Assembly (NCBI RefSeq): GCF_004323595.1
Contig: NZ_AP019373.1
Span: forward strand, 682,001 to 746,000
Length of the DNA stretch: 64,000 nt
Source of the DNA: Sulfuricystis thermophila
Lineage (GTDB): Bacteria > Pseudomonadota > Gammaproteobacteria > Burkholderiales > Rhodocyclaceae
Reading direction: 5' to 3'
Positions 20,975 through 58,302 of this stretch are shown one piece after another (the stretch's first letter is position 1; each line of letters begins with the position of its first letter). Under the pieces are notes generated by a model. That model was not told the DNA's origin and did no database searches. It saw only the letters and a list, made by a program, of their open reading frames with translations. The translations under genes and the position numbers were made by a program.

Positions 20975-21057
20975 CGGTTGCGGGAAGTCTGGGTTTTGCG
21001 GATAATGCACGCACTTCGAGTGGCGGCGCAGCATTCTACGTTGCGCGGCTTCGAATG

Positions 21058-21187
21058 GCCGAGATGGCGGAATCGGTAGACGCAGCGGACTCACAACCGG
21101 CATCGCCGGTTCAGGCTAACGTGAGCAAAGCGAACGTTAAGCGCGGCGTGAGCCGCGCGGCCGAAGCCAAAATCCGCGGCGGATTTT
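21058..21187 (+). pseudogene. Broken tRNA-Leu 5' half followed by four consecutive hairpins
   Basis: Positions 21058-21093 are an exact 36-nt copy of the 5' half of the intact tRNA-Leu(CAA) at 21214, breaking off inside the anticodon loop. The T-arm and acceptor 3' strand are missing. Four perfect hairpins follow in succession: AACCGGC/GCCGGTT (21095-21111), TAACGT/ACGTTA (21117-21139), GCGCGGC/GCCGCGC with a GTGA loop (21141-21158), and AAAATCCGC/GCGGATTTT (21169-21187). The last stem repeats the 3' side of the real anticodon arm and ends in a short T run. It could be a tRNA remnant, a processed structured RNA, or a terminator array. Confidence 0.65.
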
Positions 21188-21213
21188 GAACGATAAAATG
21201 AAAGTCCATCTTT

Positions 21214-21300
21214 GCCGAGATGGCGGAATCGGTAGACGCAGCGGACTCAAAATCCGCCGGTGGTGACACTGTGAGGGTTCGAGTCCCTCTCTCGGCACCA
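21214..21300 (+). tRNA. tRNA-Leu, anticodon CAA
   Basis: An 87-nt class II tRNA with acceptor strands GCCGAGA and TCTCGGC and encoded CCA. The anticodon stem GCGGA/TCCGC frames the loop CTCAAAA with CAA at 21248-21250, reading TTG. A variable arm and the T-arm GGTTCGAGTCC are present. A partial copy lies 156 nt upstream. Confidence 0.96.
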
Positions 21301-54503: not shown

Positions 54504-54647
54504 GCGCTTGTGAAAAATTCTGCTGCGCTTGCCATCTTGGGGTCGGGCGGTGCTCGCCATCCTCATGTATTGTCATATACACTCCGGTGGCTGCGCTCCG
54601 GCCTCCCCCAACCTGGCTGCGCTCGCGACGAATTTTTTCACAAGCTC
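54501..54647 (+). repeat. Long inverted-repeat element, copy A
   Basis: Begins at the prlC stop codon and ends 11 nt before the next start. The left end (GAGCGCTTGTGAAAAATTC) and right end (ending TTTTTTCACAAGCTC) are imperfect reverse complements over about 40 nt. Shares its first 52 nt and last about 90 nt with copy B at 58071. No coding capacity; may act as terminator, RNA stabiliser or MITE. Confidence 0.85.
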
Positions 54648-58073: not shown

Positions 58074-58302
58074 GCGCTTGTGAAAAATTCTGCTGCGCTT
58101 GCCATCTTGGGGTCGGGCGGTGTTGGCTTCGGCCGCTTCGCTTAACATCGGCTGCGCCGATGTTAGCCTACGCCGAAACTTCGTTTTGGCTGCGCCGAAA
58201 CTTCGTTTTCGCCATCCTCATGTATTGCCATATACACTCCGGTGGCTGCGCTCCGGCCTCCCCCAACCTGGCTGCGCTCGCGACAAATTTTTTCACAAGC
58301 TC
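58071..58302 (+). repeat. Long inverted-repeat element, copy B with an 85-nt insert
   Basis: Begins at the lpxC stop codon with the same 52 nt as copy A and ends with the same about 90 nt. Between them is about 85 nt of extra sequence that includes a hairpin (AACATCGGC/GCCGATGTT) and two tandem copies of GCCGAAACTTCGTTTT. Ends 6 nt before the next gene. Confidence 0.85.

What the first reader, a model, noticed from the sequence alone, without database searches (positions are those of the whole stretch)
21058..21187. Half tRNA-Leu followed by four perfect hairpins next to an intact tRNA-Leu
Thirty-six nucleotides identical to the tRNA-Leu(CAA) 5' half break off in the anticodon loop, then four successive perfect stem-loops follow, the last reusing the AAAATCCGC of the anticodon arm. 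Preservation of all four stems suggests function or recent origin. It could be a tRNA-derived regulatory RNA or the scar of an insertion into a duplicated tRNA.
Basis: partly seen in the sequence, partly recalled or inferred. Interest (0 to 1): 0.65.

Follow-up and report, generated by a model that had tools for sequence, protein, structure and literature searches.

The report
Mobile hairpin element splitting a tRNA
The "half tRNA plus hairpins" is where a small hairpin-forming mobile DNA element, one of an apparently undescribed family scattered through beta-proteobacteria, landed in the anticodon loop of a leucine tRNA gene, leaving a broken half beside a rebuilt intact gene; the same family breaks and rebuilds the ends of many core genes.

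Summary
In detail: 36 nt of tRNA-Leu(CAA) end in the anticodon loop and hairpins follow. It is not a lone curiosity. The hairpins are one copy of a dispersed, structured repeat ("E", ~55-65 nt: an outer stem, two inner hairpins, a three-way junction). My covariance model finds it in 113/399 sampled genomes of the host's order and almost nowhere else in the class. The fold is supported by compensatory changes at 16 of 18 pairs. Loops are mostly GNA trinucleotides, the ultra-stable DNA mini-hairpin type, which points to a single-stranded DNA form. Insertions go between [G/C]A and AA (64/69 sites) with no fixed-length target duplication. Beside E, conserved gene ends (yggX, ccmE, nuoD, glmS, metK) and tRNAs (Leu, Phe, Ser) occur twice: a displaced native fragment plus a restored gene. 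At ccmE the displaced fragment is native and the new end resembles another species' version. In the window, the half tRNA sits on the native promoter and leader, so it is the displaced piece; the downstream tRNA is the rebuilt gene. No mobilising enzyme was found: Y1, Y2 and reverse-transcriptase genes do not track E. A regulatory tRNA half is not excluded but unsupported. I found no earlier description in the library searched.

The parts
20978..21006 (+). Native promoter-like site (TTGCGG ... GATAAT) and start of the leader; the same leader precedes the single tRNA-Leu in relatives without the element
   Evidence: sequence; promoter role inferred
21058..21093 (+). Displaced native 5' half of tRNA-Leu(CAA), ending in the anticodon loop
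   Evidence: 36/36 identical to the intact gene; attached to the native leader
21094..21111 (+). U hairpin (CAACCGGC-ATC-GCCGGTT), left module of the inserted element
   Evidence: comparable CAA...TTG hairpins at tRNA-Leu in G106, tRNA-Phe in L180 and tRNA-Ser in G022
21112..21169 (+). Core element E (three-way junction); left arm of its outer stem deleted in this copy
   Evidence: covariance-model match 73.3 bits, E = 2e-18; model boundaries 21106-21172
21117..21139 (+). E hairpin 1: TAACGT-GA-GC-AAA-GC-GA-ACGTTA
21141..21158 (+). E hairpin 2, variable in length and sequence across copies but kept paired
21160..21169 (+). E right arm GCC-GAA-GCC-A
21168..21188 (+). Right junction: copy of the target 3' side (AAATCCGC, first nt of the tRNA 3' half) followed by its fold-back copy
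   Evidence: the AAATCCGC-type junction recurs at other tRNA insertions
21189..21213 (+). Spacer before the rebuilt tRNA, with a TAAAAT -10-like hexamer at 21194-21199
   Evidence: sequence; promoter role not shown
21214..21300 (+). Intact (rebuilt) tRNA-Leu(CAA)
   Evidence: ARAGORN and Rfam RF00005
58121..58176 (-). Second E copy in the window, nested in a MITE-like repeat (about 58077-58300)

Best explanation
The locus is an insertion site of a small non-autonomous mobile element, here called E with its left hairpin U. E is a ~55-65 nt structured palindrome: outer stem GGC-GNA-GGC/GCC-GNA-GCC, hairpin TAACGT-GA-GC-GNA-GC-GA-ACGTTA, and a second variable hairpin. Shown: E is a dispersed, covarying repeat family across the host's order; it sits at a [G/C]A|(A/C)AA junction; gene ends or tRNA halves next to it occur twice, with one copy completing the gene and the other left as a fragment. 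Inferred from the anatomy: E moves, or once moved, as folded single-stranded DNA. It entered the anticodon loop of tRNA-Leu(CAA) between CTCA and AAATCCGC. The 5' half on the native promoter stayed behind, and the gene was rebuilt by a second 5' half joined to the native 3' half. In protein genes the equivalent outcome is a left cap that restores the gene end. Cassettes then spread between species at the same gene, probably by homologous recombination. The enzyme that moves E is unknown. The half tRNA is most likely a passive remnant kept similar by gene conversion with the intact copy.
For: Same element at many loci; 113/399 genomes and 55/159 genera in the order, 13 matches in this genome, near absence elsewhere in the class. 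Pairing 96.4%, 16/18 pairs with double-sided changes, 0/500 shuffles; smaller alignment agrees. Site preference [G/C]A| in 64/69 copies against 13.5% background. Direct repeats across E beyond the 99th percentile of swapped flanks in 40 of 110 copies. Empty sites: relatives have one tRNA-Leu on the same leader, intact ccmE and yggX, intact recG. ccmE in G004: the right fragment is 96% identical to the E-less G000 gene end, the left cap 53%; the left cap is 79% identical to the G006 cap although the upstream gene is closer to G000 (89%) than to G006 (74%). The tRNA arrangement recurs at tRNA-Leu in another genus, tRNA-Phe and tRNA-Ser; a mirror version with a 3'-half fragment occurs at tRNA-Leu in L172. 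GNA loops: hairpin 1 81/92, hairpin 2 46/92 against 4 GNRA tetraloops; d(GCGAAGC) mini-hairpins melt at 78 C (PMC4686876).
Against: No transposition was observed and no enzyme identified. At tRNAs the left module is a plain hairpin and the restored part lies to the right of E, the reverse of the protein-gene pattern, so one mechanism for both is an assumption. The four species that share this insertion need two changes on a recG tree, so a single origin is possible but not shown. A DNA fold of one consensus-like core alone did not give the three-way junction as minimum (z -0.4), although the window copy does fold that way.
Confidence: 0.75

Rival explanations
1. A tRNA-derived regulatory RNA or leader: the half tRNA and hairpins are transcribed ahead of tRNA-Leu and regulate or produce a small RNA.
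For: The native promoter-like site lies upstream, so the region is probably transcribed. The half is 36/36 identical to its own intact copy in three of four species, while leaders are 76-96% identical between species. Hairpin 2 shows a compensatory change between orthologous copies (GCGCGGC/GCCGCGC versus GCTCGGC/GCCGAGC).
Against: The hairpins are a genome-wide repeat found at unrelated genes. The half has a deletion in G007, the D-loop C/T variant is shared within a genome in three of four species (a gene-conversion sign), the window copy has lost an arm of the outer stem, and most genus members lack the arrangement.
Confidence: 0.08
2. Fossil attachment site of an integrative element or prophage whose integrase used tRNA-Leu.
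For: tRNA genes are classic integrase targets, and restored gene ends are typical of such elements (established knowledge).
Against: The 156 bp between the two tRNA starts holds only E and spacers. The same E occurs at many protein genes with different target sequences. An exact E pattern had 0 hits in viral contigs, and a consensus E query found nothing in plasmids.
Confidence: 0.04
3. E is moved by a Y1 HUH transposase of the IS200/IS605 or REP-associated kind, using the sequence next to E as a guide for the target.
For: No fixed target duplication, a short fixed 5' target, hairpin ends likely formed in single-stranded DNA, and a sequence at the foot of E complementary to the neighbouring target-like sequence resemble IS608 anatomy (targeting by base pairing: PMC5934647, abstract).
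Against: The E-rich G000, G002, G004 and G006 have no Y1_Tnp match at E <= 1e-5. By my count 36/78 genomes with E and 89/172 without E have one. The fold-back arm matches its own left copy better than the right target (19 versus 3), against a simple guide role.
Confidence: 0.2
4. No dedicated transposition: E and its flanks spread only by DNA uptake and homologous recombination, with fold-back template switching building and correcting the hairpins.
For: Mosaic ccmE alleles: the first ~45 nt of the left cap are identical to the native copy, then diverge abruptly toward the G006 version. Hairpin arms follow local sequence. Tandem arrays exist. No enzyme tracks E.
Against: Does not explain the strict [G/C]A|AA junction over 69 sites, or E at dozens of unrelated genes, inside recG and cas9 reading frames and inside a MITE.
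Confidence: 0.2

Closest known systems
Rickettsia palindromic elements (RPE), summarised in PMC10969869
   Same: Small palindromic repeats, dispersed, inserted in frame inside genes and in intergenic sites; no known enzyme
   Different: E is 55-65 nt (RPE about 150 bp), forms a three-way junction with GNA loops, sits at [G/C]A|AA, and is accompanied by restored gene ends; different class of bacteria
REP / BIME with REP-associated tyrosine transposase (PMC8266576, PMC3733652)
   Same: Dispersed hairpins probably recognised as single-stranded DNA; non-autonomous
   Different: No GTAG/CGTC tag seen in the E consensus; Y1 transposase genes do not track E; low copy (11-13 clear copies here); gene-end duplications
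IS200/IS605 (IS608) and derived MITEs
   Same: Insertion next to a short fixed target without a fixed target duplication; hairpin ends
   Different: No transposase in or near the copies read; E-rich genomes without Y1_Tnp; one hairpin element rather than defined left and right ends
Integrative elements that insert in tRNA or gene ends and restore the target
   Same: A displaced native fragment on one side and a restored gene on the other
   Different: About 150 bp instead of many kb, no integrase, many different target genes
Integron attC sites
   Same: Structured palindromes, variable stem length, a GTTAAGC (GTTRRRY) box
   Different: Junctions lie outside the core at A|A, not within GTT; left box GGCTAAC does not fit RYYYAAC; no gene cassettes or integrase seen

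Membership tests
E/U element family defined here | Match to the structural model of E | tested here: met
   73.3 bits, E = 2e-18 for the window copy; the window copy was one of the 19 seed sequences, with its outer arm typed in the G004 form, so this match is partly by construction
E/U element family defined here | Insertion junction [G/C]A|(A/C)AA | tested here: met
   Window copy: GGACTCA| ... |AAATCCGC; family 64/69 with [G/C]A
E/U element family defined here | Complete outer stem | tested here: not met
   Left arm deleted in the window copy, present in G002, G004 and G007: a partly decayed member
Rickettsia palindromic elements | Sequence or size of an RPE family (about 150 bp) | tested here: not met
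   E core is 55-65 nt; named hosts are beta-proteobacteria apart from broad MAG labels; no direct alignment to RPE sequences was made
REP with REP-associated transposase | GTAG or CGTC tag at the hairpin foot | tested here: not met
   Consensus foot is C-GGC ... GCC-A
REP with REP-associated transposase | Co-occurring Y1 transposase | tested here: not met
   none in G000, G002, G004, G006
IS200/IS605-type element | Short fixed target, no fixed target duplication | tested here: met
   and empty versus filled recG and MITE sites
IS200/IS605-type element | TnpA in cis or in trans | tested here: not met
Integron attC | RYYYAAC and GTTRRRY boxes with crossover inside GTT | tested here: not met
   Left box GGCTAAC does not fit; junctions lie outside the core
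tRNA-derived regulatory RNA | Stable transcript with function | not testable with these tools
   Needs RNA data
Known Rfam family | Match at gathering score | tested here: not met
   Only the two intact tRNAs match in the window

The most novel reading that the evidence does not exclude
E/U units are gene-end cassettes: tiny mobile units that move as folded single-stranded DNA, enter conserved genes and tRNAs at a fixed A|A junction, and bring a replacement gene end that keeps the target working, so that ends of core genes are exchanged between species without any element-encoded enzyme.
Probability: 0.3. Interest if true: 0.9.

Novelty: new variant of a known kind. Interest (0 to 1): 0.7.

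Why it matters
An order-wide family of structured, mobile-looking DNA hairpins seems to have gone undescribed, at least in the library searched here. It breaks and rebuilds core genes (tRNA-Leu, tRNA-Phe, tRNA-Ser, yggX, ccmE, nuoD, glmS, metK, dksA) and inserts in frame into recG and cas9. It gives a natural system for asking how non-autonomous single-stranded DNA elements move without a recognisable transposase, and how essential genes survive insertion. It also explains a class of pseudo-tRNA halves and duplicated gene ends that annotators will keep meeting.

Tried and rejected
Phage or plasmid origin: no useful phage hit beyond tRNA similarity, 0 viral contigs for an exact pattern, no plasmid match. 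Y1_Tnp, Y2_Tnp and reverse transcriptase as movers: no association. Hairpin-loop target preference suggested by the anticodon loops: not above shuffled pairs overall (2.96 versus 2.83, 16% of shuffles as high). Fold-back arm as a guide to the recipient target: it matches its own left copy better. Simple staggered-cut target duplication for the protein-gene cases: weakened because the left cap at ccmE is foreign-like while the right copy is native.

Full report
WHAT IS THERE. The 36 nt at 21058-21093 repeat the 5' part of the intact tRNA-Leu(CAA) at 21214-21300 exactly and stop in the anticodon loop. The hairpins at 21094-21111, 21117-21139, 21141-21158 and 21168-21188 are real, and the stretch folds far better than shuffled sequence as DNA (z -5.2) or RNA (z -3.2). 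The last hairpin contains a 13-nt inverted copy of the anticodon arm. Rfam sees only the two intact tRNAs of the window.

A REPEAT FAMILY. A search of relatives with this locus hit the hairpin part alone at many other places. Reading those places gave a consensus CGGCGNAGGCTAACGTGAGCGNAGCGAACGTTAAGC-variable-GCGGCCGNAGCCAAAA. It forms an outer stem with a GNA/GNA internal loop, hairpin 1 with a tandem GA/GA and a GNA loop, and a second hairpin of variable length, joined in a three-way junction. A covariance model was built from 19 copies typed by hand from these loci. For the window copy, the outer arm was typed in the form seen in G004 because it is deleted in the window. The model finds E in 78/250 genomes of the family, 113/399 genomes and 55/159 genera of the order, and besides G000 only two genomes in a class-wide sample of 369, one of them of the same order. 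This genome has 13 matches, the last two weak. An exact pattern scan of named genomes gave Rhodocyclaceae, Sulfuritalea, Sulfurisoma, Thiobacillus, Gallionella and other beta-proteobacteria, plus some broadly labelled metagenome bins; viral contigs and plasmids gave none. On 100 distinct aligned copies 96.4% of pair cells pair and 16 of 18 pairs show double-sided changes, 0/500 shuffles as high and slid controls near background. That alignment was fitted to the model, so it leans to the structure; the smaller MAFFT alignment gives the same answer.

DNA-LIKE LOOPS. Among 92 parsed copies the hairpin-1 loop is GNA in 81 and the hairpin-2 loop is a GNA triloop in 46, against 4 GNRA tetraloops; the internal loops are GNA in nearly all. 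GNA-loop mini-hairpins such as d(GCGAAGC) are extraordinarily stable in DNA, Tm 78 C (PMC4686876). I take this as evidence, not proof, that the selected form is single-stranded DNA. Folding one consensus-like core with standard DNA parameters did not favour the junction, while the window copy did fold as one.

WHERE IT INSERTS. In 69 copies with a definable left edge the preceding bases are [G/C]A in 64 (background 13.5%) and the following bases are usually AAA, CAA or ACA. The 69 were chosen by rules that include AAA- or CAA-type left hairpins, so the right-hand preference is partly built in; the left-hand one is not. There is no fixed-length target duplication. Just left of E lies a hairpin U: either a mini-hairpin AAAC-GNA-GTTT or CAAC...GTTG, or a longer unit that starts with target sequence, runs over the end of the gene and closes with an inverted arm. 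The inverted arm fits the left copy better than the right in 19 of the 22 cases that could be told apart.

GENE ENDS OCCUR TWICE. In E orientation the usual order is gene, foreign-looking gene end, inverted arm, E, native gene-end fragment. Direct repeats across E exceed the 99th percentile of swapped flanks in 40 of 110 copies. Profiles identify glmS, dps, metK, a motA-type flagellar motor gene, dnaJ, pstB, accB, dksA, nrdB and ftsW among the targets; yggX, ccmE, nuoD, thiolase, recG and cas9 were recognised from their translated sequence. The same gene and site recur in different genera. At ccmE the E-less relatives give the empty site. In G004 the fragment right of E is 96% identical to the G000 gene end and continues into ccmF as in G000, while the left cap is only 53% identical to it and 79% to the G006 cap, although the upstream gene is closer to G000 than to G006. 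The first ~45 nt of both G004 copies are identical, so recombination or conversion has acted. At recG an in-frame E lies at one codon in several genera while most relatives have the uninterrupted sequence.

THE tRNA LOCI. Relatives without E have one tRNA-Leu on the same promoter and leader. In the window that leader joins the half, so the half is the displaced native piece; the intact gene combines another copy of the 5' half with the native 3' half. G002 (three tandem E), G004 and G007 share the arrangement. On a recG tree the four carriers need two changes; one origin is not ruled out. The same layout (5' half, CAA...TTG hairpin, E, AAATCC- or AAACCG-type stub, intact gene) occurs at tRNA-Leu in another genus (L103), tRNA-Phe (L180) and tRNA-Ser (L134); L172 has the mirror case, an intact tRNA-Leu followed by E and a 3' half; the tRNA-Phe of this genome has E upstream without a clear half. 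In G000, G002 and G004 the half is identical to its own intact copy including a C/T variant that differs between species, which suggests gene conversion; in G007 it has a deletion.

MECHANISM. Shown: family, structure, junction preference, duplication of gene ends, empty sites, mosaic ccmE allele. Inferred: movement as folded single-stranded DNA, and the step by which U acquires a gene end. Unknown: the enzyme. Y1_Tnp is absent from E-rich G000, G002, G004 and G006, and by my count it occurs in 36/78 genomes with E and 89/172 without. Y2_Tnp and RVT_1 do not track E in 25 genomes. Copies may now spread mainly by homologous recombination between species.

NOVELTY AND LIMITS. Literature searches in the open library returned no description of this element; subscription journals are mostly missing. 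The nearest kinds are Rickettsia palindromic elements (PMC10969869), REP elements (PMC8266576) and IS200/IS605 derivatives. The regulatory-RNA reading cannot be tested without RNA data and remains possible at low probability.

Noticed in passing
window 58077-58300: A MITE-like repeat with ends CTTGTGAAAAATTCTG / AAATTTTTTCACAAGC that carries an E copy (58121-58176, minus strand); similar repeats at several other places in the genome (L091, L094, L095), and the same end motifs at 54507-54645 in the window.
   Followed up: partly
L085 around 1640-1790 and L093 (G000): A second MITE-like family with ends GAAACCCCTGCGAAAC / GTTTCGCAGGGGTTTC. One copy lacks E and another contains it, giving an empty and a filled site in one genome (GGGAGCGA|GTACCGCG versus GGGAGCGA|AAACGAAGTTT-E-GCCAACACCGCG).
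   Followed up: partly
L055 / L036 (G004): E lies in frame near the start of a Cas9-like gene (reading ...NEVSVQANVSAANVKARSAGRSQNLTFGFDIGIASVGW...).
   Followed up: no
L216, L212, L187, L167, L311: E inserted in frame in recG at the same codon in several genera; the encoded peptide (ENGVS..ANVSAANVKRSGRSQ) would sit inside the helicase.
   Followed up: partly
G706:C67:14718-15346: A tandem array of six E copies at 107-117 bp spacing.
   Followed up: no
L172: A different genus has an E insertion at the same queA-tRNA-Leu(CAA) locus, but with a 3'-half fragment after E and the intact tRNA before it.
   Followed up: yes
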